This document shows, piece by piece, positions 14,642 to 36,424 of a stretch of 52,144 bases of DNA. Within the stretch, counting starts at the first letter, position 1; each line of letters opens with the position of its first letter. Source of the DNA: a virus; IMG/VR virus record IMGVR_UViG_3300043435_000349, positions 1 through 52,144 of that record. One strand, 5' to 3'. A program made the translations under genes and the position numbers. The notes under the pieces were generated by a model, which did not search any database, was not told the origin of the DNA, and worked only from the letters and a program-made list of their open reading frames with translations.

Positions 14642-15292
14642 TCACGGGGTGATTTCCCAATTCATCAAAGACTCATAAACGGCTGGCCTCAAGACATCTT
14701 TGTATTGATTGGCTACAGCTTTGATGTATGCTTCCTTTGCTGTCTTGTATGCCATTGATGTTTGTTCCACACTTGGGTATTGACCAACAGTGGTAAGTTT
14801 TCCACCAACTCTGATATGCCCCTGAAATGAGTTGTCTCTCCTGTTGTAGCTTACCCCATTGGGCAGCCCATTGTGGAGGTCATCGCAGCCTACAATCAAT
14901 GAGTTGATTGCTTGCGGTACTAATGCACATGTTTCTGCGGAATATAGTTTTCTGCCACGCCCAAGAATGTCTTTGTCAAGTTCAAGACCATAAGGCTTGC
15001 CGGAATACTCAACCTCTCCGTTTATCCACTGCAAAAAGCTGGCAAATGAAAGCCAATCATCCGAACATGTAACATCCAAATATCTCGGATACTTTGCCTT
15101 GAACCCATTGTTAAAGCACCTGTGAAGCATCGACAGCCACAACACATATTGCCAACAGTTTTTTCCCTCATCGACCCATATTTTGAAGTTGACATCGTTA
15201 TAACCATGACCCTGAACTGTCGGTGGAACAACCCTACGCTCAACACTCACCAACTGATCAATCTCAGCCTGACTAAGTTTTAACTTCTTCAT
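14642..15292 (-). CDS. HNH/AP2-like homing-type protein (copy 1)
   Basis: This is a 216-residue protein. It shows the block order of a phage homing-endonuclease-like family: a WQYVLWLSMLHRCF region, SDDWLSFASFLQW, then LDKDILGRGRKLYSAETC, VPQAINSLI, and a C-terminal AP2-like DNA-binding stretch with GVSYNRRDNSFQGHIRVGGK and YKTAKEAYIKAVA. The classical H-N-H residues are not all evident, so nuclease activity is uncertain. It is a paralogue of the gene at 17768. The ATG at 15292 (GGAGGGG upstream) matches the paralogue's start. It overlaps the helicase-like gene upstream. Confidence 0.7.
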   Translation of the reverse strand: MKKLKLSQAEIDQLVSVERRVVPPTVQGHGYNDVNFKIWVDEGKNCWQYVLWLSMLHRCFNNGFKAKYPRYLDVTCSDDWLSFASFLQWINGEVEYSGKPYGLELDKDILGRGRKLYSAETCALVPQAINSLIVGCDDLHNGLPNGVSYNRRDNSFQGHIRVGGKLTTVGQYPSVEQTSMAYKTAKEAYIKAVANQYKDVLRPAVYESLMNWEITP

Positions 15293-16518
15293 AACCCCTC
15301 CAACCATTCTCTCAAGAGTTTTTCCATCCTACTACTAAAAATGCAAACGTGCATCACTTCCCCATTACGGATACACCCACGCCATAGCCACTGAATCATC
15401 TCTGACAATGCAAACACATCTGTCTTGACGGGACAATCCCAATCTTGTAGGTAGGATGCCACAGCAACATTAGTATGCCGATTATAACAATGCATCATAT
15501 GTGTAACATGTGCGTGGTCGTTTGTCGCCCTTGTTGATGCAGCAAGCCAGCAGGGAAGTCCATTAGGCTTGATTGTATAACCAACAGGCTTAATCTTCTC
15601 ACTCTTTGCGGCAGATGCACAAGACCTGTATTTAGGGAACGTGTACAACACATTTTCCGATGACACGCCCCAATTCCGGCATGCCCTCAATATGGCGTTC
15701 TTAACCACATTCAGATCACCTTTCATCGGATTCATGTACCACGAATAGGTGAGCTTGTTCCGAAGATTGAAATTCTTAGGTGGTGGGGTGACCACTAATA
15801 GCTCACGCATCTTGTCGCCACAAATCCTCTGTAGTGCCAAAGGCTCTGCAAATGGGATGCTTGTAAACCCTTTGAGCTTGAGGAAGCTGTCTAGGATGTT
15901 ACCCTCAAACAAATAGGTGAGGATGATTACACGCTTCGCACTCTCAAGCAGCTTTGATGGTAGTTGTACAGTGAGCATGGTGTCACTACGCTTGGTTGTG
16001 TACAAACACCCACTATTGCACATCTGACGCAATCGGTAGTATTTATGAGAAGGACAGGCCACCTCAACAGACTGATTCACCCATTCAACCATGCCATCAT
16101 TCTCACCGATCTTGATGAAGCCTTCTTTGATCAACCACTTTAAATCCTCAATTGAATAATCATTGAATGCTTCAATCAGACCAATTTCCTCATCCACCAC
16201 GACAATGTAATCGTGTTGTTGAATGGCTTCAAAATGCTCATCAGTCATCAGTTTGTATAGGCTGTGTGTGCATGACACATTAGCACCAGCTTTCAGAAGC
16301 TCAAGCATAGCACCACTCTTACCTTCACCACTATCTTCTGGTGAATGGAACTCAACATTTCTGACAGCCTGATGCAGTCTACCACCACTCTCAACCTCAC
16401 TCAATAATGGTGACACATAGATATACCTCTGGTGGTAGTTGGCATCAATCCACTTGATGATGCTGCTGCTCTTACCAGACCCCATGATGCTATCAACAAT
16501 CTCAACAACCTTTCCCAT
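15289..16518 (-). CDS. P-loop helicase-like protein (copy 1)
   Basis: This is a 409-residue protein. The Walker A motif is at residues 11-18 (IMGSGKSS), then YIYVSPLLSEVE, a TH block (SCTHSLYKLM), and Walker B DEE (YIVVVDEEIGLIEAF). Near the C-terminus is QWLWRGCIRNGEVM, resembling helicase motif VI, followed by SSRMEKLLREWL. The motif order is that of SF2 DEAD/DEAH-type helicase-like phage proteins that are widespread but unstudied. It has a paralogue of 492 residues at 34946-36424. Its upstream region is the hairpin-rich non-coding stretch, so a role at a replication origin is conceivable but unproven. Confidence 0.75.
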   Translation of the reverse strand: MGKVVEIVDSIMGSGKSSSIIKWIDANYHQRYIYVSPLLSEVESGGRLHQAVRNVEFHSPEDSGEGKSGAMLELLKAGANVSCTHSLYKLMTDEHFEAIQQHDYIVVVDEEIGLIEAFNDYSIEDLKWLIKEGFIKIGENDGMVEWVNQSVEVACPSHKYYRLRQMCNSGCLYTTKRSDTMLTVQLPSKLLESAKRVIILTYLFEGNILDSFLKLKGFTSIPFAEPLALQRICGDKMRELLVVTPPPKNFNLRNKLTYSWYMNPMKGDLNVVKNAILRACRNWGVSSENVLYTFPKYRSCASAAKSEKIKPVGYTIKPNGLPCWLAASTRATNDHAHVTHMMHCYNRHTNVAVASYLQDWDCPVKTDVFALSEMIQWLWRGCIRNGEVMHVCIFSSRMEKLLREWLEGL

Positions 16519-17767: not shown

Positions 17768-18421
17768 ATGGGTAAGTTGAAGTTGTCACAACAGGAAATT
17801 GACCAGTTGGTGCTGGTGGAGCGAGTGGAGAGGAAATCTACAGTGTGTGGCGTTGGAGTTGTTGATGTGGTATTTCAACCCTCAATTAGAGGGAAAGTTA
17901 TCTGGCAATACGAGCTATGGAAGGGTGTTTTGAGGAGATGTTGCTCGGAAAAACTTAAAGCAAATCGACCTCACTATCGGGAGGCATCTATTTGTACGGA
18001 TTGGCTGTCTTTTGCAACGTTTTTCGAATGGGTCAATCTGGAGGTTGGGTACAAAGGAAAGCCTGTTGGGATGGAATTGGATAAAGACATTCTCGTTAAG
18101 GGAAATAAGGTTTATTCACCGACTACCTGCTGTTTTGTCCCATCACGGATCAATAAGCTATTGACCGACAGAAGATCACATCGTGGTCAATATCCTATTG
18201 GTGTAACGTTCAATAAAACAGGTGGTCGCCTAGCGGCATCCTTAAATTGTAATGGTGTGGATGTATTTCTAGGTTTGCATGATACACCAGAGGCTGCTTT
18301 CTTAGCCTACAAGACAGCAAAAGAGTCTTATGTTAAGGAAGTCGCAAATGAATACCGACATGCCCTCACATCAGAAGCATACACCGCACTGATGTCTTGG
18401 GAGGTGGATATTTCTGCTTAG
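17768..18421 (+). CDS. HNH/AP2-like homing-type protein (copy 2)
   Basis: This 217-residue paralogue of the 14642-15292 product has the same block order: KLKLSQQEIDQLV start, IWQYELWKGVLRRCC, TDWLSFATFFEW, LDKDILVKGNKVYSPTTC, VPSRINKLL, an AP2-like segment, and YKTAKESYVKEVANEYR. The two copies lie in opposite orientation on either side of the helicase-like gene plus hairpin array, as if flanking a mobile segment. Nuclease activity is not certain because canonical HNH residues are not all visible. Confidence 0.7.
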   Translation: MGKLKLSQQEIDQLVLVERVERKSTVCGVGVVDVVFQPSIRGKVIWQYELWKGVLRRCCSEKLKANRPHYREASICTDWLSFATFFEWVNLEVGYKGKPVGMELDKDILVKGNKVYSPTTCCFVPSRINKLLTDRRSHRGQYPIGVTFNKTGGRLAASLNCNGVDVFLGLHDTPEAAFLAYKTAKESYVKEVANEYRHALTSEAYTALMSWEVDISA

Positions 18422-19210: not shown

Positions 19211-19510
19211 AATGTCTAAGAATCTGGTTTGTCAACTATTTGCCGACGAAATGAGTATGATCCGATGAACGGCATAAAACAAGCTATTTTCGCCACTTGT
19301 CGGAAAATAAAGATATTGGTATTGACTTTCTAAGTTGGCATGTATTGTGCATATGTTCTATCGAGCTTGCTCGAATATCATAGTGATTGTTGTTTGTCAA
19401 TCTTTTTCTGATGAGTGGTAAATAACAGGCTCGTCCGGTGATTGTCTCCACCGAGTGCCAGTGCTGTCGCTAATATAGCTCGTCCGAGGGACGCTGTCAA
19501 CATGTTTAAG

Positions 19511-19535
19511 AAATAAAAACCGCCAATAATGGCGG
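19511..19535 (-). terminator. rho-independent terminator
   Basis: On the minus strand, CCGCCA-TTAT-TGGCGG followed by TTTTTATTT. It ends the unit of the gene at 19555. Confidence 0.85.
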
Positions 19536-19554
19536 CTAGTGTAGTCTGGTGATT

Positions 19555-19869
19555 CTAGGCTTTTTCATAATAAACAAAATTCTCTAAGTCGATACCAAAG
19601 CTGGTTACAATCACGCCGGACTCCAAGGCGCGTATATCGGTATAACCGGCAATTTTCCGACCGTCTTCTAGTGTAAAGATAAACCGGCTAGAAGGTTTTG
19701 TGTTGTCACTTGTGGCCTTTACAATCCGAACGACCTTCATTTTAACGCCTTTTTTGATTGAGCTGTTGCCAGTGAATTTTTTGGCACAGCTCCAGCCATA
19801 TGGCTTATTGCCGACAAATACAGGGGCAGACACTTCAGCTTTGCAGCAAGAACATAGGATGGTGGACAT
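19555..19869 (-). CDS. unknown small protein with N-terminal Cys cluster
   Basis: The protein has 104 residues from the ATG at 19869 (GGAG eight bases upstream). The N-terminus has a Cys group (ILCSCCKAEV, then GWSCAKKF) that may bind zinc. The C-terminal half begins with MKVVRIVKATSDN, reminiscent of the start of the gene at 20235 (TIVRIVKTS). It forms a single-gene unit with its own promoter and terminator. No family is recognised. Confidence 0.6.
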   Translation of the reverse strand: MSTILCSCCKAEVSAPVFVGNKPYGWSCAKKFTGNSSIKKGVKMKVVRIVKATSDNTKPSSRFIFTLEDGRKIAGYTDIRALESGVIVTSFGIDLENFVYYEKA

Positions 19870-19915
19870 TGCAGTCACTCCAAAAAAGATACACCGGATC
19901 TGGTGCGTTAAGGCC

Positions 19916-19944
19916 ACTATATAAGACTAATGTGCATCATGCAA
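19916..19944 (-). promoter_or_regulatory. promoter, TTGCAT-17-TATAGT type
   Basis: On the minus strand, TTGCAT (19944-19939), 17-bp spacer, TATAGT (19921-19916), then GGCC. The same hexamers and GGC initiation region occur at 21055-21086. A CCGACGAACGG repeat lies just upstream. Confidence 0.65.
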
Positions 19945-19949
19945 CTATT

Positions 19950-19964
19950 TGCCGACGAACGGCA
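19950..19964. repeat. CCGAYGAACGG motif, best copy
   Basis: TGCCGACGAACGGCA forms a TTGCCG / CGGCAA inverted repeat. Related copies are TCCGATGAACGGCA (19261), AGCCGACAAACGGCA (20781), TCCGACGAACGGTA (23283) and, reversed, TACCGTTCATCGGGA (23220). Half copies are at 18870, 18890 and 19241. Most lie close upstream of promoters, so they could be operators or protein-binding iterons. Confidence 0.65.
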
Positions 19965-20153
19965 ACCGAGGGACAAACAAAACCGGATAAATCAGGCCGG
20001 AACATAGTCCTATATGCTCCCCATTTGCCGTATACGCTTTTTAAATGCAATCGGGTAGGGTAGCCCCATGATCAGGCTAAACAGGCGTATAACGCAAAAT
20101 AGGAAGGACAATAAACAGGCTAGAAATGTTCTAAATCTTTTTGCTTAATAGTG

Positions 20154-20182
20154 TTGACAAGCATATTCAGATGGATAATAAT
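20154..20182 (+). promoter_or_regulatory. promoter sharing an 18-base block with the 29991 promoter
   Basis: TTGACA at 20154-20159, 17-bp spacer, AATAAT at 20177-20182. The 18 bases AATAATGGCTTCAACAGA (20177-20194) are identical to those at 29996-29979 on the minus strand. Confidence 0.8.
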
Positions 20183-20234
20183 GGCTTCAACAGAGGCGGA
20201 CTGTCCCGCTCAATTTTGAATCAGGAGTTACACC

Positions 20235-20576
20235 ATGGCCACTATCGTGCGTATCGTTAAAACATCTTTGTGGACTGCTTATATTGTTGCTGGTAAAGTG
20301 ACATTGGCTAAAGATGCAAAAACTGGCCGCTTCATTAAGCGTAACCTTGTACAGATGTTCATCGACACATTAGCCGCTCAAGCTGTTTTGAGTGTACGTG
20401 GTTACAATAACAGCTTTAATGCCATTGCTAAAAAAGTGCTTAACGTGCCTAGCTTCTTTAGTGACAAACTTTGTGTACTGTTGTTCACCAGCAACACTCT
20501 AACAGATAGCGAGATGCGGTCGGTAGTGCGTGACTGTCAAAACGCTGGTTACTATACGGACATGATTGCCGCATAA
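20235..20576 (+). CDS. orphan small protein, paralogue of the 23381-23692 gene
   Basis: This is a 113-residue basic protein with an AGGAG ribosome binding site, in a single-gene unit. The N-terminal 50 residues share a pattern with the 23381 product: A-x-x-GK-x-x-LAK-x-AK-[ST]-G-[RK]-[FW]-IK, then a DxLA helix. No known domain is recognised. A perfect parS-type palindrome begins at the first base after its stop codon. Confidence 0.65.
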   Translation: MATIVRIVKTSLWTAYIVAGKVTLAKDAKTGRFIKRNLVQMFIDTLAAQAVLSVRGYNNSFNAIAKKVLNVPSFFSDKLCVLLFTSNTLTDSEMRSVVRDCQNAGYYTDMIAA

Positions 20577-20592
20577 CGTTTCACGTGAAACA
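20577..20592. promoter_or_regulatory. parS-type centromere site 1
   Basis: CGTTTCACGTGAAACA matches 15 of 16 positions of the conserved bacterial parS (TGTTTCACGTGAAACA), including the whole palindromic core. It lies directly after the stop codon at 20576. parS is bound by chromosomal-type ParB (Spo0J). Binding here is inferred. Confidence 0.8.
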
Positions 20593-20644
20593 TCATAGCC
20601 TGTCACGTCTAACAGGCTAGACACAAAGATACAAATATCTTATT

Positions 20645-20676
20645 GCCTTATCATGTGAATCATGGTAGGGCTTTTT
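20645..20676 (+). terminator. rho-independent terminator
   Basis: GCCTTATCATG / CATGGTAGGGC is an 11-bp stem with two G-U pairs and a 5-base loop, followed by TTTTT. A further 7-bp hairpin TAGCCTG / CAGGCTA (20596-20619) lies between parS and this terminator. Confidence 0.75.
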
Positions 20677-21054
20677 CGTCTATTTGTCAGCCTTTCCATT
20701 AGACGTGTTTGGTGTTTGTCTCCCCAGTCATGCCGTGCTGTCCCCACTATAACTAATTTACCTATATTGTGTCAACAATAAGCCGACAAACGGCAACCGA
20801 GGGAATCAGCACCGAGACGGGTAGCCCCAGCTATAAGCCAGTAGCCCCAGAACGCTCTGGTTTGCGTTATACGCCGTTCTATTCGAGTCTGGTACAAACA
20901 TACAGGCATATAGGCTGGAAAGCCGTATACGACAATTTAGCTTTTTGAACAAATAATTGTTGACAATGTACTACCTGTATGCTACGCGCATACGCGCATA
21001 CAAATAAGACAAAACATAGCATCGAAAATAAATGCAAATAATTTAATAAAACGC
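20677..21054. other. non-coding stretch, repeats
   Basis: No gene is visible. It contains a CCGACAAACGGCA motif (20781), the string ACGGCAACCGAGGGA shared with 19959, a GGGTAGCCCCA string also at 20056, and GCGTTATACGCC (20867), which is the exact inverse of 20091-20102. A TTGACA at 20961 has no good -10. Confidence 0.6.
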
Positions 21055-21083
21055 TTGCATCATGTTTTTGTTTTGGATATAGT
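21055..21083 (+). promoter_or_regulatory. promoter, TTGCAT-17-TATAGT type
   Basis: TTGCAT at 21055-21060, 17-bp spacer, TATAGT at 21078-21083, followed by GGCTCTACCGGCTAGAG, a small hairpin at the predicted 5' end. The leader before the first gene is about 80 bases. Confidence 0.75.
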
Positions 21084-21170
21084 GGCTCTACCGGCTAGAG
21101 ACGATCTAGTGGGCAGTTAGACAAGGCAACAGACTAGCCTAAATAGTCGATTTTGAATACAGGTGCAATT

Positions 21171-21593
21171 ATGGCATTTTTAACAGTTAAACATTCAATC
21201 AGCAAGGCACAAGACACCTGCGGCTACAATCGTGTAACTCTGATTGATCAATCAACGGGCAAGCGTTATACATGTGTCGGTGGTGGATACGATATGCTAG
21301 GCACGTGCCTAGGTCAGTATTTGCAAGCTAATCACCAAGTGGAGTTGCTTGGTTTAGTTTGTCGTGCAAAGCAAGCGGTGACATTTGATGCTGAATCAAA
21401 CCGCTATCGGTTTACTGATAACCCTGTTAGTAGTGCGCTTTATGGCTTAACCTACAATGCAAAGCTTAACGCTATGCAATTGGACGGAGGCTGCGGTTTT
21501 GAATGTATGGTACGGATAGCGCGTGCAGCCGGTTTGACGGTGAATCTTCACCACGACAAGAAAGGCCGTTTGATCAATCTTTTTGTGGGGTGA
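21171..21593 (+). CDS. orphan protein
   Basis: The protein has 140 residues from the ATG at 21171, with AGGTG five bases upstream. The N-terminal half looks like a beta-rich domain (RVTLIDQSTGKRYTCVGGGY). The C-terminal half contains GGCGFECMVRIARAAGLTV. No known family is recognised. It is the first gene of a seven-gene unit of small proteins. A 16-bp perfect palindrome, CTAGGCACGTGCCTAG, lies within it at 21297-21312. Confidence 0.65.
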   Translation: MAFLTVKHSISKAQDTCGYNRVTLIDQSTGKRYTCVGGGYDMLGTCLGQYLQANHQVELLGLVCRAKQAVTFDAESNRYRFTDNPVSSALYGLTYNAKLNAMQLDGGCGFECMVRIARAAGLTVNLHHDKKGRLINLFVG

Positions 21594-21596
21594 ATC

Positions 21597-21785
21597 ATGC
21601 AGCTTGTCGGTTATGTATGCATCACAAGCAAAGGTCGATATAAGTATGATCGGCAATCAATGGAAAAAGCTTGTCGGCAATATGGCAAGTCTGGTTTATA
21701 TGAATCTGATTGTTTGTGGATTATTAAAGTCTGGAACAATCAGGGTAAGAGTGGCGGTTATTGTTACAAACCAGTCTATCGCTAG
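21597..21785 (+). CDS. orphan small protein
   Basis: This is a 62-residue basic, Tyr-rich protein starting three bases after the previous stop (GTGGGG upstream). The pattern MQLVGYVCITSKGRYKYDR, then KACRQYGKSGLYESD, is not recognised. Confidence 0.5.
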   Translation: MQLVGYVCITSKGRYKYDRQSMEKACRQYGKSGLYESDCLWIIKVWNNQGKSGGYCYKPVYR

Positions 21786-21845
21786 AATGAAACATAGGCA
21801 AGCTATCACGCCTCAAGTGATAGCATTTTTAAGGAGGGACATATA

Positions 21846-22232
21846 ATGTCCAACATGGCACAACCGAAGGTAATTGAGCTAACGCTCGACGATGTAGGGT
21901 ACAATGGCGTAACCAAGCGTGACGTGGGCAAGCTGATGCTAGTATGGCCTAATGGTTGTACAGACATTATTAGCAAGTATGAGCCGATTAATCGTAATTG
22001 GCTAGGACATGTGATTTATGAGAATGGCGGGCGTTATTCACACCACCACAAAAATGATGATGGCGATTTAGTGTTTTACTGTGACATACTACCGGATAAT
22101 GTTGCTGCATTATTCCCGCAAGCCATTGTTATAAGCCGTGGCGATTATGTCAGATCTAAGCTGGTATTTCCCAAAAATACTAGGCTCAAGACACTACGCA
22201 CAACATACAAGGGGGTAAGATTGTATGCCTAA
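21846..22232 (+). CDS. orphan protein
   Basis: This is a 128-residue protein with a strong AAGGAGGG ribosome binding site. It shows MLVWPNGCTDIISKYEPIN and a His-rich loop (GGRYSHHHKNDDGDLVFYC). The C-terminus is basic. No family is recognised. It overlaps the next gene by 8 bases. Confidence 0.6.
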   Translation: MSNMAQPKVIELTLDDVGYNGVTKRDVGKLMLVWPNGCTDIISKYEPINRNWLGHVIYENGGRYSHHHKNDDGDLVFYCDILPDNVAALFPQAIVISRGDYVRSKLVFPKNTRLKTLRTTYKGVRLYA

Positions 22233-22386
22233 GCTATGGTTATATCGCTACCCTTGCGGCAAGATTGGCTACTTTATTGGGATTCACAAGGTGGCCACAA
22301 AAGTTACTGGTAAGCTCGACAAGCGCAACAAATATGTCATGTTGAATTGTCACCGTTATCAAATAGGCGGTTGGATCAATGGGTAA
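22225..22386 (+). CDS. orphan small basic protein
   Basis: The frame has 53 residues, with AAGGGGG upstream (about 11 bases), and overlaps both neighbours. It contains YPCGKIGYFIGIHKVATK and NCHRYQIGGW. No family is recognised. The tight coupling supports expression. Confidence 0.5.
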   Translation: MPKLWLYRYPCGKIGYFIGIHKVATKVTGKLDKRNKYVMLNCHRYQIGGWING

Positions 22387-22444
22387 CCTCCTAGCCTTTT
22401 TGTTTTGGTTGTCCCTTTTTTCTTTAATGTTTTGGAGTGTTTAA
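22379..22444 (+). CDS. tiny hydrophobic membrane peptide
   Basis: A 21-residue frame in ATGGGTAA overlap with the previous stop, ending one base before the next start. It is almost entirely hydrophobic (LLAFLFWLSLFSLMFW), as expected for a single membrane span. Its shortness makes the call tentative. Confidence 0.4.
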   Translation: MGNLLAFLFWLSLFSLMFWSV

Positions 22445-22445
22445 G

Positions 22446-22673
22446 ATGGATTATCTAACGAATCAGGAGCTTGCTGCATTTAATGCAAGCCAGAAAGTAG
22501 TACAAGCCGGATCTGTTGCCTTTAATGGCTATGTATTCACAGGGTACGATGCACGAGCCTACAATGCTTATTTGTATGACTTAAGCAAAGAACGCCACAA
22601 GCCGACAAGGGATTTTCTGCTTGATCAACGTCACCGTCTTTTTTGCTTAATCATTGGCATGGTAGGAGTGTAA
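22446..22673 (+). CDS. orphan small protein
   Basis: The protein has 75 residues from the ATG at 22446 (GGAG eight bases upstream). It has an N-terminal helix (NQELAAFNASQKVVQ), a Tyr-rich middle, and a hydrophobic end (RLFCLIIGMVGV). No family is recognised. Confidence 0.55.
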   Translation: MDYLTNQELAAFNASQKVVQAGSVAFNGYVFTGYDARAYNAYLYDLSKERHKPTRDFLLDQRHRLFCLIIGMVGV

Positions 22674-22676
22674 AAC

Positions 22677-22859
22677 ATGGCTACACAATTTAGCGTAAGA
22701 CGCAATGTATACTACGCAGGCATGTTAGAATCATCGGACATTGTAGCGTCTGGTTTTGAATCGTACACAATGGCTGACTATGCATGCTACACTATTGCAA
22801 ACAACAGCCAATGTCTGTTAGAGTTTAAAGGTTGCCATATTGTTTTTAGTGTGGTGTGA
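22677..22859 (+). CDS. orphan small protein
   Basis: This is a 60-residue protein with a GGAG site seven bases before the start. It is the last clear gene of the 21171 unit. It contains FSVRRNVYYAGMLESSDIVA and CYTIANNSQCLLEFKGC, resembling a small beta domain. No family is recognised. Confidence 0.5.
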   Translation: MATQFSVRRNVYYAGMLESSDIVASGFESYTMADYACYTIANNSQCLLEFKGCHIVFSVV

Positions 22860-23040
22860 AGGCTGCACCCACCCCCACGATTCACAAGGCAAGCGTATAG
22901 CCTTTTTAATATGCGCATTTTTGGTGTGCTGGTGTTTATAGGTTTGAACGCACAAGCATGGGTAAGGTCTACCGTGTGCAAGTGGGATTCTTTGAGTTGA
23001 GACAGCACCCAATACAGGACATTTACTAACACAATCAATT

Positions 23041-23064
23041 AAGCCCCTTTACTGGGGCTTTTTT
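23041..23064 (+). terminator. rho-independent terminator
   Basis: A perfect 7-bp stem AAGCCCC / GGGGCTT with a 6-base loop is followed by TTTT. It ends the 21171-22859 unit. Confidence 0.85.
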
Positions 23065-23297
23065 ACGTCTATGCAAAAGCAATGCCAACTTTAAATGTCA
23101 AGTATTATTTGAAAAATGGCCTATGCCTCTAAATGCGCATAGAATCGCGTATACGCGCTTGTTTGCCTTTCTGGTACAAGTGGGTTAGAACATTCCCAGA
23201 GGGGCATTAGAGGCGAAATTACCGTTCATCGGGAAAACTTGACATTCTAAAAAATACATGGGTGAGAATTATGTTCTAATTGTCCGACGAACGGTAG

Positions 23298-23326
23298 TTG
23301 TGTCTAAAGCCACAATGTAGCATAAT
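23298..23326 (+). promoter_or_regulatory. promoter for 23381 unit
   Basis: TTGTGT at 23298-23303, 17-bp spacer, CATAAT at 23321-23326, followed by AGCTTCACC, which resembles the GGCTTCAAC start region at 20183. It overlaps or abuts the CCGACGAACGGTA motif (23283-23296), as expected for an operator. Confidence 0.6.
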
Positions 23327-23380
23327 AGCTTCACCAAGACGGCAAACGGTGCTTAGTCTGGTAATAGTGAGTGAGACGAA

Positions 23381-23692
23381 ATGGCAAAGTTAGCGAAGGT
23401 AGTAACCAGCAAAATGATCATTTGGGCAAACAATGGCAAGGCTATGCTTGCAAAATGCGCCAAGTCTGGTAAATGGATCAAGTTAGATGATGCACAATGG
23501 CTGCTGGACAATTTAGCACTATTGGCTTGTAAAGCCTTTAGTAAATCAGCAAGCGTGACACAATCAACACAAGCGGCTATTGAGTTTGACAAGACAGTGG
23601 CATTTTTTGGTGTGGTCGGTATTTGGTCGAATGTTCGTGGATGCAACCAGCCCACTGCATATCTAGCCAAACTAGCACTGACTAGCAATTAA
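23381..23692 (+). CDS. orphan small protein, paralogue of the 20235-20576 gene
   Basis: This is a 103-residue basic protein. The N-terminal block (VVTSKMIIWANNGKAMLAK, then KSGKWIK) matches the 20235 product in pattern. The C-terminal half differs. No known family is recognised. Like its paralogue it has an individual promoter and lies a few hundred bases before a parS-type site. Confidence 0.6.
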   Translation: MAKLAKVVTSKMIIWANNGKAMLAKCAKSGKWIKLDDAQWLLDNLALLACKAFSKSASVTQSTQAAIEFDKTVAFFGVVGIWSNVRGCNQPTAYLAKLALTSN

Positions 23693-23703
23693 TGAGATGC
23701 ACA

Positions 23704-23808
23704 ATGGACAAGACAAAAGCAGCAATCAAATACGATGTTTTAAACTTGAATTACCTTGTCAATGCATTAGATAGTGGTGCGATGGACAAACCAGAAGGAG
23801 TTGTTTAA
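23704..23808 (+). CDS. tiny orphan protein
   Basis: A 34-residue frame with only a weak GAGATG site, whose stop overlaps the next start (TAATG). Helical pattern (AIKYDVLNLNYLVNALDS). Real but low-expressed, or a leader for the next gene. Confidence 0.4.
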   Translation: MDKTKAAIKYDVLNLNYLVNALDSGAMDKPEGVV

Positions 23809-23948
23809 TGGAAAGCCAAGCTGTTGAGATGTTAAAACTGCTAATGCTAGCCCTTGATCGCGGTCATGGTGAAGTATGGCAAGTGAGATGTACAGAGGAA
23901 TACCAGAGGGTTGAACAGTGGATGCTAGACAATATAGAAGATGACTAA
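23808..23948 (+). CDS. tiny orphan helical protein
   Basis: A 46-residue frame with a strong AGAAGGAG ribosome binding site, ending just before a parS-like palindrome and a terminator. It is helical and acidic (VEMLKLLMLALDRGHGEVW). No family is recognised. Confidence 0.5.
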   Translation: MESQAVEMLKLLMLALDRGHGEVWQVRCTEEYQRVEQWMLDNIEDD

Positions 23949-23950
23949 CA

Positions 23951-23966
23951 AGTTCCACGCGGAACA
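23951..23966. promoter_or_regulatory. degenerate parS-like palindrome
   Basis: AGTTCCACGCGGAACA keeps the GTTCCACG / GGAAC arms of parS but has CGCG in the centre, lacking the CACGTG core. It lies 60 bp before the intact site at 24011. Confidence 0.5.
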
Positions 23967-23969
23967 ATT

Positions 23970-23995
23970 GCCGCCGATCATGGCGGCTTTTGTTT
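23970..23995 (+). terminator. rho-independent terminator
   Basis: A 6-bp GCCGCC / GGCGGC stem with a 6-base loop, followed by TTTTGTTT. It ends the 23381 unit. Confidence 0.85.
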
Positions 23996-24010
23996 GCCCG
24001 CTGTTTACTA

Positions 24011-24026
24011 TGTTCCACGTGAAACA
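24011..24026. promoter_or_regulatory. parS-type centromere site 2
   Basis: TGTTCCACGTGAAACA is an exact match to a well-known natural bacterial parS variant and 15 of 16 to the consensus. With the site at 20577 it brackets the accessory small-gene region. No parB gene is recognised in this window. Confidence 0.8.
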
Positions 24027-24080
24027 ATGGCGGCATAGGGTCAGGCGGCTAGGCGGGCTATTGTCCGACAATAATGCCGG

Positions 24081-24299
24081 TTAATCGACCAGCTCGACCC
24101 AATGCCGTAGAATCGCACAGAATCGCTTGTATGGCGTTTCATGGTCAAGGCATCGAATCAGGCTAGTGGCGGCTATGGGGCGGTATAGCGTGCATCCTAC
24201 GATATTACATAATGTGGTTTGAAGGGGTGCGTCAGGGGTGCGCCGTGATAAACAGTAGAATAGATAGATTTCAAAAACTACATAAAGTGACAGCCCCAT
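24081..24299 (-). CDS. doubtful small protein
   Basis: A 72-residue frame with a hydrophobic start (GLSLYVVFEIYLFYCL) and a basic, Cys-containing remainder. There is no ribosome binding site, so this may be non-coding. The remainder of 24027-24308 shows nothing else except an ATTGT-CCG-ACAAT hairpin at 24060. Confidence 0.25.
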   Translation of the reverse strand: MGLSLYVVFEIYLFYCLSRRTPDAPLQTTLCNIVGCTLYRPIAATSLIRCLDHETPYKRFCAILRHWVELVD

Positions 24300-24308
24300 A
24301 GACAGGTA

Positions 24309-24590
24309 CTACGTCAGCACCTCAACACACCCAACACACCCCTCAGGACGCCGCTTCTTCATGTAGCTCTTGAGAGCCTTAATGCCATCTTCTGACAACT
24401 TTTCTTTTATCTCCCAACCACAGCCATTACGCACAACAACAGAGTTGCCATCATTGTGGCAAATGAATAAAGCCCCATCTTTCCACACAACACTATTCAC
24501 AATCACCCTCGATATTTTCCTCAAATGAAATAGCCCCTCAAATGAAAAGAGGGGTATTCCAAAAATAATTTTTACCAAATTTGATAACAT
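24309..24590 (-). CDS. unknown small protein
   Basis: The protein has 93 residues from the ATG at 24590, which has no good ribosome binding site. A GTG around residue 30 with GAGG upstream is a possible alternative start. The C-terminal part (SEDGIKALKSYMKKRRPEG) is basic. It is the last gene of the long minus-strand series. No family is recognised. Confidence 0.45.
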   Translation of the reverse strand: MLSNLVKIIFGIPLFSFEGLFHLRKISRVIVNSVVWKDGALFICHNDGNSVVVRNGCGWEIKEKLSEDGIKALKSYMKKRRPEGCVGCVEVLT

Positions 24591-24611
24591 GGAAACATTT
24601 AATTGTTTAAA

Positions 24612-24869
24612 TTAAATATCACCAATAGCATCCAAATCCTCATTCACATTGTTGACGCTTGCTGTCAGCAGATTCAACAACACAGGGTCAATCATCATTG
24701 CACCCCAATCAACTTTCAACCCATACCTACCGCCACATTTAATGGTTGAGAAAGATTTGGGTGACGTACTGGACGCAATAGGCAAGCCAAATTTGTTCTC
24801 AGAAATCTTGTCAAAACCAAGCTCATTCAACTGTCGGACATACCGAGAGGATAATATTGAATTATTCAT
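24612..24869 (-). CDS. unknown small protein
   Basis: This is an 85-residue protein with GAGAGGG before the start and an ATGA overlap with the gene upstream. N-terminal helix (SRYVRQLNELGFDKI). No family is recognised. Confidence 0.5.
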   Translation of the reverse strand: MNNSILSSRYVRQLNELGFDKISENKFGLPIASSTSPKSFSTIKCGGRYGLKVDWGAMMIDPVLLNLLTASVNNVNEDLDAIGDI

Positions 24870-25135
24870 ACATCCCTCTCCATCTCATACTGCCTGTTAA
24901 GCTCATCCACTGTAGAGCAGATAAGACGTAGTTGGTCGTAGCAGAATCTGGTTGAGCTAGTCTGTGGGTTGGCACACCACTCACCCCATTCTGGGTCAAA
25001 ACAGAATTCCGCCACCCTCAATGCTGATACGTCTGTCTTTTGTTGTAAACACCAACCACTACCCCTTTCCTCAATCCACATGTCATACTTCTTAAACTCT
25101 TTGTTGAGCCACTTCTTTGCGTGAAACACTTTCAT
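24866..25135 (-). CDS. unknown small protein
   Basis: The protein has 89 residues from the ATG at 25135 (GGTGG seven bases upstream). A longer frame exists only with a TTG start. It is rich in Trp and Cys (ERGSGWCLQQ, PEWGEWCANP). Coupled by overlap to both neighbours. No family is recognised. Confidence 0.5.
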   Translation of the reverse strand: MKVFHAKKWLNKEFKKYDMWIEERGSGWCLQQKTDVSALRVAEFCFDPEWGEWCANPQTSSTRFCYDQLRLICSTVDELNRQYEMERDV

Positions 25136-25281
25136 CGAAATTCCACCCCGTTCAACATGCTGATAATCAAGATTGCCGCCATTAACAATGCGATACAAGA
25201 AGCTGTCTGCAACCTACCAAAATGGTAGCATGTCACAGATGCCCCTGCAAGCATATAGATAACATTCGTAATAAATTCCAT
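25132..25281 (-). CDS. small membrane protein
   Basis: This 49-residue frame fills the otherwise empty gap between its neighbours. The start shares a base with the upstream stop (TGATG), with GGAG eight bases before. The stop overlaps the downstream start (ATGA). One membrane span is evident (ASCIALLMAAILIISML) and a weaker one at the start. Function is unknown. Confidence 0.5.
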   Translation of the reverse strand: MEFITNVIYMLAGASVTCYHFGRLQTASCIALLMAAILIISMLNGVEFR

Positions 25282-25556
25282 CACAATTCTCCGTAACACC
25301 TGTTGGATCTTTCAATAATAGCTTTCTTGCGAGTGGCCAACTCAGTGCGCTTCCTGTCACTGTACGAATCAACCACGTCGCATACCTTCTGAACATCCAC
25401 TTGCGTAAGACCAGACAAGTGATGCTGGATTATCACCTCTTTGCAACCAAGCAATATTGTCATATTGCTAATACAGTCGTATGTCAACATCTCACACCCA
25501 AGAATGTACCACTTATCTTCAGTAAGCACCTCCATTAAACCCTCTAGCTTTTTCAC
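25281..25556 (-). CDS. unknown small protein
   Basis: This is a 91-residue protein with an ATGA overlap with the gene upstream. It has a basic helical end (DRKRTELATRKKAIIERSNR). No family is recognised. Confidence 0.5.
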   Translation of the reverse strand: MKKLEGLMEVLTEDKWYILGCEMLTYDCISNMTILLGCKEVIIQHHLSGLTQVDVQKVCDVVDSYSDRKRTELATRKKAIIERSNRCYGEL

Positions 25557-25843
25557 CCAACGCTTTCCTTCTGTTCAAAATCTGGTTGATGTAGAGCGTA
25601 GTCAATGAAGCATTTCAGCACAGCTTCTACGGGACAATTGCTCAACCCCATGTACACTTTTTGGCAATCTGCCATCCAACGCTTCTCAAACAGGTTGTTG
25701 ACACTAATCTTGTAGTCAAACACCAGATCAAACACCATCTCGTGATGTCCACGTCGCCACACAGGATATTTGTTTCCAGTGATACGCTCATATTCACTAC
25801 ACGCTTTGTTCAAGAGCTTTTCAAACTGCAATGAATCAGACAT
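25553..25843 (-). CDS. unknown small protein
   Basis: This is a 96-residue, mostly helical protein (FEKLLNKACSEYERITGN; VEAVLKCFIDYAL). It overlaps both neighbours. No family is recognised. Confidence 0.5.
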   Translation of the reverse strand: MSDSLQFEKLLNKACSEYERITGNKYPVWRRGHHEMVFDLVFDYKISVNNLFEKRWMADCQKVYMGLSNCPVEAVLKCFIDYALHQPDFEQKESVG

Positions 25844-26093
25844 GTTGATAGCTCCTAGAAAGATAGTTGAGTGTGTCGGCGTAGAGGGAAAGCACAGATG
25901 GAATCATAAAATACCTATCAGCACCTTCATCTGCTGCAATCCAAACATCGCCACACCTCGCAAATGAGAAAACACAGGTCATACTGTCAATCTCAAATAC
26001 ACCAACACTATCCTCGCTCATCTCAATCAATCTTAGAGCATGCTCTTTATAACGTAGCAACATCTCACCACTAAACTTAAAATAATTGTACAT
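25836..26093 (-). CDS. unknown small protein
   Basis: The protein has 85 residues from the ATG at 26093 with a GGGGGG site. Mixed alpha/beta appearance (VFSFARCGDVWIAADEGADR). No family is recognised. Confidence 0.5.
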   Translation of the reverse strand: MYNYFKFSGEMLLRYKEHALRLIEMSEDSVGVFEIDSMTCVFSFARCGDVWIAADEGADRYFMIPSVLSLYADTLNYLSRSYQHV

Positions 26094-28579: not shown

Positions 28580-29272
28580 TCAACCTCCGATCATACCATT
28601 CAAGACAAGCCATGCGCTTGCAGCCACAAGAGGTACTTGTCCGTTTCCAAGAGCTTTAAGTCTGTCCACCCTGAAGGCCACCCCATCAGATACTCGAAGT
28701 TGTTCGGGGTAGGTTTCCCAAACGCCGTTACGAAGTTCCTGCAACTCTTGTGTTTCTGCATACTCGGTGCTGCGAAGTTTGCAATAGTCGTCGGTGTATG
28801 CAAGAAGCCAAAATCTGTCCCGTTCATGGTCTGCACCAACGTCTTTCGCTGAAAGTTTTGTATGCAGACACCTGTAACCCTCTTGCTCAAGGTCTTTCTT
28901 TGCCAATAGTATGGCTTTCTCGGATACGTTTTCAGCAAAGACTGCTCTAGGGCATACCTCTCGGACAACCCTGTACATTTCTGCCCAAAGGTCTTTTGAA
29001 GCAATGTTTCTACCTCTTGCCGCAGCAGAGAATGCTTGACAGGGGAATCCTCCAGAAACCAAGTCCACAGTTCCTTTCCAAGCCCTTCCATCAAACGTAC
29101 AGATGTCGTCCCATATCGGGAAACTTCCAATTGAGCTTCGTTCGTTTTGCCGTTGAATGAGAACTTCGATGCAGTATTGATCTCGTTCCACAGCGCAAAC
29201 AATGTTGTGTCCGAGGATATTACTTGCAAGTATTCCTCCACCACAACCCGCGAAAAGTGCCAACTCATTCAT
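28580..29272 (-). CDS. DNA (cytosine-5) methyltransferase
   Basis: This is a 230-residue C5-MTase. Conserved motifs: I (LFAGCGGG, residues 6-13, AdoMet binding), IV with the catalytic Cys78 (SGGFPCQAFS), VI (AENV, 113-116), VIII (ERDRFWLLA), and X (LGNGQVP near 213-219). It is shorter than most bacterial enzymes (over 300), with a compact target recognition region between motifs VIII and X. Phage C5-methylases protect DNA from host restriction. No cognate endonuclease is nearby, so this is an orphan methylase. Target sequence cannot be read from the sequence. Confidence 0.93.
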   Translation of the reverse strand: MNELALFAGCGGGILASNILGHNIVCAVERDQYCIEVLIQRQNERSSIGSFPIWDDICTFDGRAWKGTVDLVSGGFPCQAFSAAARGRNIASKDLWAEMYRVVREVCPRAVFAENVSEKAILLAKKDLEQEGYRCLHTKLSAKDVGADHERDRFWLLAYTDDYCKLRSTEYAETQELQELRNGVWETYPEQLRVSDGVAFRVDRLKALGNGQVPLVAASAWLVLNGMIGG

Positions 29273-34941: not shown

Positions 34942-34957
34942 GGCTTCAAAAGAAGCC
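34942..34957 (-). terminator. hairpin at gene end
   Basis: GGCTTC-TTTT-GAAGCC spans the stop codon of the helicase-like gene. No T-run follows, so termination is weak at best. Confidence 0.4.
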
Positions 34958-36424
34958 TTCCCAACTGATGACAGGCATTTCATTGTCCACACACTCAGAA
35001 ACGTATTCTGAGGGCAATTGCTTGTCAAAAACACAAGGGGCTTCAATAGTCCCGTCATCTTGTTCCCATCCATCCCAACATGTTGTCGGCATGTTCTTGT
35101 CAGCAGAAGGCTCTTTCACAGGGACATCCGCAACAGGGCTGTCAACAAACACAATGCCAAGATTTTCTGATGCCATTCTGTATGACAATGGGTTGCTAAC
35201 AACAAATTCGTCATTAAGCCAACGTTCAAACAGCTTGCGCATTCTTGGGGCTAAGATAGCCACAGTCATTGGTTCACCCTTACGGATACACCCACGCCAC
35301 AACCACTGCACTAGCTGAGATAGCGCATAATGATCACGATCAACCGACACCCCCATGTCCGTCAAATAAGCATCCACAGCACTGTTGGGGTGGACATCTA
35401 AAGCATAGACCATCACTTTCTTGTGGGCATACTCATTGGTAGCCCGACACTTCGGATAAATCCATGTTTCCCGACCCTCCTTATGCACCTTTCCGTTTGG
35501 CTTAATCAACCTGTTTTTCAATTCACCACGCCTAATTACAAATTCTTTTGGTAGTGAGAACCCACAATCCGCAGCATCATATGGTCGAAATATGTTTGAC
35601 AAAGTTCGCTCAACAGCCTGTATATCAGGCGACTTCATGTTTTTCCAAGATGTCTGTGTCAAGGACAACTTGTCATATGGTTTGTAGTAGGATTTTGACA
35701 CAGGCTCAATCAGGTGAGCCACACTACTAGGCAACACATCAGGAACGTCAACACCTGTAAACTCTATCCACTCAACACCATGTAAAGACAAGAACTGCTC
35801 AAGCAAACTACCCTTAAACATGTAGCTCATAATGATGACACGTCTAGCACACATCAAAACATCAACAGGCAGACAAGACACCACAAAGCCATTATATCGC
35901 TTGGAACTATACAACAAACCTTTCCCACACATCTCCTTGACCTCCGTGTACATGACCTTCTGTACAGTGGAAGCATCATGAAATGTCAACCTGCCATTTG
36001 TGTCATCACGCGACAAGTGACCATTGTCAAACAACCAAAGCATATCTCTAGGTGGGACATCTCGGAAGGCTTCAATCAAACTCACTTCTTCATCCAACAC
36101 GATGGTATAGCCGAGTTGCTGAATCAACTTCCAATGACGTTCATCACAAGTTTTCAACAGAGCATGTGTTGTAGCAATGTTTTCCCTTCCAGACAACAAT
36201 AACAACATGTCCTCTGCCTTAGAGGATCGCCATTTATCACCATCTTTAAACACCAACCGCTCTGGACACTTAACAGCAAGGTCTGGCCTTACAGCATTGA
36301 TCCTTTCTTCTGCTTCACTGAGCAATGGGGTGACAAAGATAAATCGCATCTCTGGTTTTAGCCACTGTAAAATGGCATTAGTCTTACCAGCACCCATCAT
36401 CCTGTCTAACACTTCAACTTTCAC
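34946..36424 (-). CDS. P-loop helicase-like protein (copy 2)
   Basis: This is a 492-residue protein paralogous to the 15289-16518 product along its first 400 residues: Walker A RMMGAGKT (8-15), FIFVTPLLSEAEERI, ATTHALLKTC, Walker B TIVLDEEVSLIEAF, SKRYNGFVVSCLP, CRATNEYAHK, and QLVQWLWRGCIRKGE (motif VI-like). It carries an extra C-terminal region of about 80 acidic residues with PTTCWDGW and PVISWEGFF, absent from copy 1. The two may be partners or act at two sites. Its upstream non-coding DNA contains the same 26-bp repeat as copy 1. Confidence 0.75.
   Translation of the reverse strand: MKVEVLDRMMGAGKTNAILQWLKPEMRFIFVTPLLSEAEERINAVRPDLAVKCPERLVFKDGDKWRSSKAEDMLLLLSGRENIATTHALLKTCDERHWKLIQQLGYTIVLDEEVSLIEAFRDVPPRDMLWLFDNGHLSRDDTNGRLTFHDASTVQKVMYTEVKEMCGKGLLYSSKRYNGFVVSCLPVDVLMCARRVIIMSYMFKGSLLEQFLSLHGVEWIEFTGVDVPDVLPSSVAHLIEPVSKSYYKPYDKLSLTQTSWKNMKSPDIQAVERTLSNIFRPYDAADCGFSLPKEFVIRRGELKNRLIKPNGKVHKEGRETWIYPKCRATNEYAHKKVMVYALDVHPNSAVDAYLTDMGVSVDRDHYALSQLVQWLWRGCIRKGEPMTVAILAPRMRKLFERWLNDEFVVSNPLSYRMASENLGIVFVDSPVADVPVKEPSADKNMPTTCWDGWEQDDGTIEAPCVFDKQLPSEYVSECVDNEMPVISWEGFF

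What the first reader, a model, noticed from the sequence alone, without database searches (positions are those of the whole stretch)
20577..24026. Chromosomal-type parS centromere sites in a phage accessory region
Two 16-mers match the highly conserved bacterial parS: CGTTTCACGTGAAACA at 20577 and TGTTCCACGTGAAACA at 24011. A degenerate third lies at 23951. A 16-base site with at most one mismatch is not expected by chance in 52 kb, and two are less so. They sit at gene ends beside terminators, 3.4 kb apart, and bracket two of the tiny-gene units. No ParB is recognised in the window. This suggests the phage captures host ParB, for segregation as an extrachromosomal element, for genome positioning or condensation, or as a decoy. 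Alternatively, a phage ParB lies elsewhere in the genome.
Basis: partly seen in the sequence, partly recalled or inferred. Interest (0 to 1): 0.88.

Follow-up and report, generated by a model that had tools for sequence, protein, structure and literature searches.

The report
Host centromere sites in phage DNA
This phage genome carries short DNA sites of the kind bacteria use to pull their own chromosomes apart, but no gene for the protein that reads them was found, so the phage probably borrows the host's protein; the same sites turn up in many unrelated phages.

Summary
Observation confirmed. Two perfect chromosomal-type parS sites (20577, 24011) and one with a single mismatch (23951) lie within 3.5 kb; a Markov model of the window expects 0.001 perfect sites. 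No ParB or ParA-type domain was found in the window. Carriers include phi29, whose use of host ParB (Spo0J) to enter spores is published, and Pseudomonas, Acinetobacter, Gordonia, Lactobacillus and Listeria phages; 60 of 65 carriers checked lack a ParB_N domain. In three colinear relatives (AciJM_313, UAVern, phiPsa374) parS lies at the same place in the gene order as window 24011, the operon junction at the genome ends, inside the terminal repeat in two. The trait is patchy: 2 of 64 records chosen by terminase alone carry it. Best reading: host-type parS lets host ParB load on phage DNA at entry and ties it to host ParA/SMC. Binding and benefit remain inferred. Known in principle (phi29); new in this phage group, its terminal-repeat setting and its breadth.

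The parts
20577..20592 (.). parS-type site CGTTTCACGTGAAACA, immediately after the stop codon of the gene 20235-20576
24011..24026 (.). parS-type site TGTTCCACGTGAAACA (exact match to TGTTNCACGTGAAACA) between convergent genes
23951..23966 (.). degenerate parS-type site AGTTCCACGCGGAACA, one mismatch to NGTTYCACGTGRAACN, 60 bp from the perfect site
23970..23991 (+). terminator-like hairpin GCCGCC-gatcat-GGCGGC followed by TTTT, between the two right-hand sites
   Evidence: sequence; fold
20235..20576 (+). small protein (113 aa) ending next to the first site; paralogue of the 103-aa protein at 23381
   Evidence: no PHROG family up to E 0.1
23381..23692 (+). small protein (103 aa), paralogue of the 113-aa protein
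   Evidence: best PHROG E 0.033
23808..23948 (+). 46-aa reading frame, last + strand frame before the convergent junction
   Evidence: sequence; no PHROG family up to E 0.1
24309..24590 (-). last gene of the leftward operon, stop codon facing the junction

Best explanation
The sites are host-type parS sequences placed in cis on a phage genome that shows no ParB of its own. After injection, host ParB-CTP loads at the sites and slides onto neighbouring phage DNA. The phage DNA then carries the mark the cell uses for its own origin region, so that ParA (and perhaps SMC) holds it with the nucleoid and it is kept, positioned or inherited while lytic development waits or is slow, as published for phi29 and Spo0J during sporulation. 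Shown here: the sites, their excess over chance, their recurrence in unrelated phages, their mostly intergenic position, their place at the operon junction and genome ends in colinear relatives, and the lack of ParB domains in most carriers. Inferred: that host ParB binds them, and that positioning or persistence is the benefit. My estimate is about 0.8 that host ParB binds, and about 0.5 that segregation or persistence is the main benefit.
For: (1) Excess: 0.00096 perfect sites expected, 2 seen. IMG/VR: at least 120 stretches for TGTTCCACGTGAAACA against 4 and 9 for two permuted 16-mers. GenBank phages: 286, 147 and 58 records for three parS variants against none for two permuted controls. 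(2) Clustering: the 120 loci hold 26 sites beyond one each; other rearranged palindromes average 0.025 in the same DNA. Some single records hold many: 24 in G009, 12 in G019, 7 in G028; G009 has phage terminase, DNA polymerase and helicase. (3) No ParB: ParB_N in 1 of 15 GenBank carrier phages (which searched 23 records) and in 4 of 50 IMG/VR carriers; HTH_ParB over its cut-off in 0 of 22 records, two below it. (4) Host match: a bacterial contig with dnaA-dnaN-recF-gyrB, filed under Acinetobacter phage MD-2021a, has four parS, one of exactly the 24011 form on the + strand and one on the - strand; the terminase of the window is closest to Acinetobacter phages. (5) Gene order: phiPsa374, AciJM_313 and UAVern are colinear with the window by protein matches and have parS at the same junction, inside the terminal repeat in phiPsa374 and AciJM_313 (repeats verified identical). 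(6) Position: 19 of 24 sites with annotated surroundings are intergenic (with 36, 39-41, 49-56, 58, 59, 63). (7) Precedent: phi29 has four sites; its spore entrapment by Spo0J is described in PMC9437464 (passages). (8) Escherichia and Salmonella phages are absent from the 58 records and not among the ten names shown; Enterobacteriaceae lack chromosomal par genes (PMC7022226, passages).
Against: No binding or infection data. The trait is patchy: of 64 records chosen by terminase alone, 2 have a perfect site (1 of 14, 1 of 50); A. baumannii phages B9, Bestia, BS46 and TaPaz have none even with one mismatch, although their hosts should have ParB (recall). Many of the 50 are short fragments. Ten Klebsiella records carry TGTTCCACGTGGAACA although Enterobacteriaceae lack ParB, so single sites can be accidental. 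Five of 65 carriers do have ParB_N. Four of 21 carriers tested have a tyrosine recombinase, so not all carriers need be strictly lytic. The one phi29 site whose surroundings I saw is coding. The 20577 form is not among the four sites of the origin contig. The terminal-repeat position in the window is inferred from gene order; no reads were available. Why a fast lytic phage should need segregation is unexplained.
Confidence: 0.55

Rival explanations
1. Host ParB is recruited as a transcriptional silencer or insulator: clamps spreading from parS damp early phage genes or separate convergent transcription units, delaying or timing the lytic programme.
For: Sites lie near terminators and a convergent junction and by small-gene operons. 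In P. aeruginosa ParB represses genes next to intergenic parS3/parS4 (PMC5521831, passages). In L052 (part of G009) sites lie in short gaps before genes, judged by eye. A Bo-Finn site overlaps a predicted promoter, and UAVern 6934 lies just upstream of a gene start.
Against: At the window junction and in AciJM_313 both flanking genes end there, so no promoter is next to the conserved site. In the other phages the gaps vary and no common link to promoters was apparent to me.
Confidence: 0.2
2. Decoy: the sites titrate host ParB away from the chromosome and disturb host segregation, favouring takeover.
For: Phage copy number rises during replication (general knowledge), and some records carry many sites (24 in G009).
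Against: 14 of the 15 GenBank carrier phages have only 1-4 sites (Atuin has 6); placement in terminal repeats suggests an early cis role rather than mere titration.
Confidence: 0.1
3. A phage ParB-like or other DNA-binding protein, encoded in the missing part of this genome, reads the sites.
For: The window is probably a fragment; some carriers do encode ParB_N (RobsFeet; 4 of 50 IMG/VR records).
Against: The complete colinear carriers have no ParB_N and no HTH_ParB. The motif is the bacterial consensus with its usual variants, not a phage-specific one.
Confidence: 0.12
4. Chance or non-functional: accidental palindromes, or RNA hairpins at gene ends.
For: The trait is patchy; Klebsiella records suggest that isolated accidental copies exist.
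Against: Expectation 0.00096 against 2 seen; permuted palindromes essentially absent; abutting head-to-tail 16-mers in L015 and mixed half-sites fit a DNA-binding site better than an RNA stem.
Confidence: 0.05

Closest known systems
phi29-like Bacillus phages and Spo0J (ParB) spore entrapment
   Same: Virulent phage without ParB_N carrying four perfect chromosomal-type sites, all of the mixed form; host ParB used for phage genome fate (Meijer et al. 2005, known to me by recall and as cited in PMC9437464, passages).
   Different: phi29 is a 19-kb phage of a spore former and the site I saw in context (10446) is coding; here a probably ~90-105-kb phage, likely of a non-spore-forming gammaproteobacterium, with intergenic sites at a convergent junction that corresponds to the genome ends of relatives.
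Chromosomal ParABS of bacteria (parS clusters near oriC)
   Same: Same 16-mer and variants, as in the origin contig filed under an Acinetobacter phage name.
   Different: No parA or parB found in cis; on a phage.
parABS of extrachromosomal prophages (RedRock and other cluster A mycobacteriophages)
   Same: Partition sites on a phage genome.
   Different: RedRock encodes its own ParA/ParB and its parS loci are eight direct repeats of an 8-bp motif (PMC7157519, passages), not chromosomal parS.
CtrA sites in alphaproteobacterial phages ('lytic deferment')
   Same: Phages carrying sites for a host regulator (PMC9437464, passages).
   Different: Transcription factor sites in promoters, not centromere sites.

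Membership tests
Chromosomal-type parS | 16-bp site matching TGTTNCACGTGAAACA or its palindromic variants | tested here: met
   (24011 exact; 20577 departs from the consensus only in its outermost base)
Chromosomal-type parS | Bound by host ParB, nucleating CTP-dependent spreading | not testable with these tools
   needs gel shift, bio-layer interferometry or ChIP-seq
Complete phage parABS partition system | parA and parB genes with the sites | tested here: not met
   no ParB_N, HTH_ParB or AAA_31 in the window; fragment caveat; complete colinear carriers also lack ParB_N
phi29-type use of host ParB | perfect parS on a phage without ParB | tested here: met
   (window: only the part held)
phi29-type use of host ParB | host-ParB-dependent phage genome fate | not testable with these tools
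   needs infection of a parB deletion strain
Junction/terminal-repeat parS of Otagovirus-like and Acinetobacter phages | parS at the operon junction on the side of the leftward operon away from the terminase | tested here: met
   window 24011; phiPsa374, AciJM_313, UAVern; in UAVern one leftward gene (uav_176) lies between the convergent gap and the sites
Junction/terminal-repeat parS of Otagovirus-like and Acinetobacter phages | site lies inside a direct terminal repeat | tested here: inconclusive
   true for phiPsa374 and AciJM_313; the UAVern record has no exact end repeat of 21-5000 bases; in the window only inferred from gene order

The most novel reading that the evidence does not exclude
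Capture of host ParB by host-type parS is a general strategy that arose many times in ParB-less phages, from 5-kb microviruses to ~200-kb tailed phages, confined to hosts with chromosomal ParABS and often placed in the terminal repeats or ends of the genome; it gives supposedly lytic phages a host-driven segregation or persistence phase.
Probability: 0.35. Interest if true: 0.88.

Novelty: new variant of a known kind. Interest (0 to 1): 0.72.

Why it matters
Lytic phage genomes are found in many bacterial assemblies, read as carrier-like states (PMC12768965, passages), but how such a genome would be kept in dividing cells is unclear. If virulent phages borrow the host centromere protein, that gives a simple mechanism testable with one 16-bp site and one host gene, and links phage biology to ParB-CTP clamps and SMC loading. 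Ready test systems exist: phages listed with P. putida KT2440 as a host carry these sites.

Tried and rejected
Nucleotide relatives in GenBank phages: none for 19500-26000 (distant mode) or 30000-52000 (near mode). Relatives of the 113-aa protein: none in IMG/VR, only E of 0.2 or worse in GenBank phages. The 3-mismatch shuffle test is too loose to decide. Chromosome contamination of the IMG/VR loci was considered: none of nine oriC-region proteins matches any of the 120 loci at E 1e-8, but one record filed as an Acinetobacter phage is a chromosome piece and was used only as a host control; other GenBank hits, such as unannotated Listeria records, were not checked one by one. An RNA or terminator role was rejected as the main reading because sites occur abutting head to tail and as mixed half-sites. 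The end-proximity figure (10 of 24 lineages within 5% of a record end) is exploratory: I chose the lineages by hand from the listings, left out circular records, microviruses, fragments and near-duplicates, and some records start at arbitrary points.

Paper searches for a report of host-type parS in phages, judged from listings, starts of abstracts and passages of ten papers, showed none beyond statements about phi29. The library lacks most subscription papers and all bioRxiv preprints, and Meijer 2005 and Livny 2007 were not held, so novelty in print is uncertain.
Full report
Observation. The window is a 52,144-base virus record. It contains CGTTTCACGTGAAACA at 20577-20592 and TGTTCCACGTGAAACA at 24011-24026, plus AGTTCCACGCGGAACA at 23951-23966. 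A first-order Markov model expects 0.00096 perfect NGTTYCACGTGRAACN and 0.038 sites with at most one mismatch; 2 and 3 are seen. Of 1,260 rearranged palindromes, parS and two patterns that read the same 20577 site occur. The looser 3-mismatch shuffle test is not significant by itself. The published consensus is TGTTNCACGTGAAACA (PMC7022226, passages), so 24011 is an exact match.

The phage. The window carries a terminase closest, among GenBank phages, to Acinetobacter phages (45% identity over 97% with vB_AbaM_B9), ribonucleotide reductase, PhoH, ClpP, a cell wall hydrolase and a C5 methylase; no tyrosine recombinase, ParB or ParA-type domain was found. The 30 listed relatives are 88-106 kb long, so the window is probably about half of such a genome. 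No nucleotide relative was found in GenBank phages for the two stretches searched. Six small genes from the region of the sites were compared with PHROGs; the best match has E 0.033. The proteins at 20235 and 23381 are paralogues.

Gene order. Acinetobacter johnsonii phage vB_AciJM_313, which I picked for its terminase and not for parS, matches the window in terminase, portal, hydrolase, ClpP, the PhoH-type protein and the first large gene of the leftward operon, in the same order. It has four parS matches. Two are copies of one site in a 6,437-bp terminal repeat, about 85 bp from the left end (repeat verified identical). The right-hand copy lies between convergent genes ending at 99296 and 99698, as window 24011 lies between 23948 and 24309. 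phiPsa374 is colinear in the window's own orientation: the reductase block (74-80 kb), then rightward genes to 97322, the 526-bp terminal repeat with its only site, the leftward operon (ClpP and PhoH at 22-23 kb), then the terminase at 33 kb; the window has reductase at 4-6.7 kb, rightward genes to 23948, parS, the leftward operon to 36.4 kb and the terminase at 40.2 kb. UAVern has the same order from terminase to operon and two sites, 271 and 1020, at its left end, next to the genes that face the operon; one leftward gene (uav_176) stands between them and the strict convergent gap, the record has no exact end repeat, and two more sites lie elsewhere. I infer that the contig runs across the place where the ends of the packaged genome lie, so the sites at about 24 kb, and perhaps 20577, are in a merged terminal repeat; this was not tested.

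Patchiness. Most terminase relatives examined lack the site. Of 14 records fetched by terminase alone, only AciJM_313 has one; B9, Bestia, BS46, TaPaz, Intesti, Boevelstad, Edwardsiella ET-ABTNL-9 and six IMG/VR records have none. Of these 13, all but one short IMG/VR record (L003) were retested with one mismatch and again had none. Of 50 IMG/VR relatives, mostly the longer contigs of the 80, 1 has a site. UAVern was on the terminase list too (row 12) but was fetched through its parS, so it is not counted here. The trait seems to be gained and lost by lineage.

Breadth. The 120 loci (1.06 Mb; L038 and L118 are from one contig) hold 146 sites, 26 more than one each, 13 loci with two or more; other rearranged palindromes average 0.025. 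Whole-record searches of 50 of the 120 (all 13 multi-site loci and 37 others) found 24, 12 and 7 sites in three large contigs. G009, with 24 sites, encodes phage terminase, helicase and DNA polymerase. ParB_N was found in 4 of the 50. In GenBank phages 286 records carry TGTTTCACGTGAAACA, 147 TGTTCCACGTGAAACA and 58 TGTTCCACGTGGAACA; two permuted palindromes had no match. These searches ran at the edge of BLAST sensitivity (E = 8 for a 16-base match), counts are records and not lineages (87 of the 286 bear a Listeria name), and at least one hit is a mislabelled chromosome piece. Of the 15 carrier phages among 23 GenBank records searched for ParB_N, only RobsFeet has it. Of 21 carriers, 4 have a tyrosine recombinase.

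Host link. The mislabelled record holds dnaA, dnaN, recF, gyrB and rpmH and four parS: GTTCCACGTGAAAC, GTTTCACGTGGAAC and twice GTTCCACGTGGAAC. The 24011 form is thus among them; the 20577 form is not. That the contig is Acinetobacter rests on its label. None of nine oriC-region proteins is found in the 120 IMG/VR loci. Enterobacteriaceae and Pasteurellaceae lack chromosomal par genes (PMC7022226, passages); all 58 records are listed and none is named an Escherichia or Salmonella phage, and neither name is among the ten shown, so at most 6 of 286 and 3 of 147 could be Escherichia. Against this, ten of the 58 are Klebsiella records; eight are about 350 kb (RaK2, K64-1 and others, with the site under baseplate or hypothetical genes where annotated), probably one accident inherited by a clade.

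Position. Of 24 sites whose surroundings I saw annotated, 19 are intergenic, 4 coding (AciJM_313 88152, phi29 10446, RobsFeet 43821, Atuin 135898) and 1 straddles a gene boundary (P100plus); positions, genes. Repeat copies were counted once. Left out: Lpa804 69955 (no genes listed near), the chromosomal record, and sites outside the stretches shown. Sites lie in terminal repeats in phiPsa374, AciJM_313 and Vibrio phage phi 3, and by position perhaps in Atuin (two pairs 176,888 bp apart; repeat not checked).

Mechanism. Established for ParABS: ParB loads on parS, closes as a CTP clamp, spreads, stimulates ParA and recruits SMC (PMC12704722; PMC7333895; passages). For phi29, entrapment of the phage chromosome in the spore by Spo0J is stated in PMC9437464 (passages; the original paper was not held). 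I therefore read the window sites as a handle for host ParB that acts early after entry. Binding is inferred, as is the benefit; segregation or persistence is favoured over silencing, SMC loading or titration because of the phi29 precedent and because the conserved site lies at gene ends rather than promoters. Silencing remains a serious rival (PMC5521831, passages).

Novelty. Ten paper searches showed no survey of host-type parS in phages; the library is partial and most hits were seen only as listings. The principle is known from phi29, so I rate this a new variant of a known kind, with a bolder general reading kept open.

Noticed in passing
L052 (G009, 116,662 bases): A high-GC phage contig with 24 parS (whole record); the 12 in L052 are nearly all the same mixed form in one orientation, in short gaps next to ribosome-binding-site-like sequence (by eye); a possible separate regulatory use.
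   Followed up: partly
L015 6863-6894: Two parS 16-mers abut head to tail, with a third 226 bp away, in a 77-kb viral contig.
   Followed up: no
L038 884 and 1565: parS forms the core of a longer imperfect palindrome (gggcgatgc...tcaccgccc) resembling a terminator hairpin.
   Followed up: no
GenBank Microviridae records: Several 4-7 kb microviruses, mostly from faecal or gut samples, carry perfect parS sites.
   Followed up: no
CAKLQF020000029.1 (L261): A record filed as Acinetobacter phage MD-2021a is a bacterial origin region (dnaA, dnaN, recF, gyrB).
   Followed up: yes
window 15289-16518 and 34946-36424: Two paralogues of PHROG 2467 (unknown function), both matching one AciJM_313 gene annotated as an RNA helicase.
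   Followed up: partly
window 20235-20576 and 23381-23692: Two small paralogous proteins (32% over 60 residues) flank the small-gene region between the sites.
   Followed up: partly
window 17768-18421: HNH endonuclease (PHROG 953) left of the accessory region.
   Followed up: no
window 28580-29272: C5-cytosine DNA methylase; the parS core CACGTG contains a CpG, so methylation could affect ParB binding.
   Followed up: no
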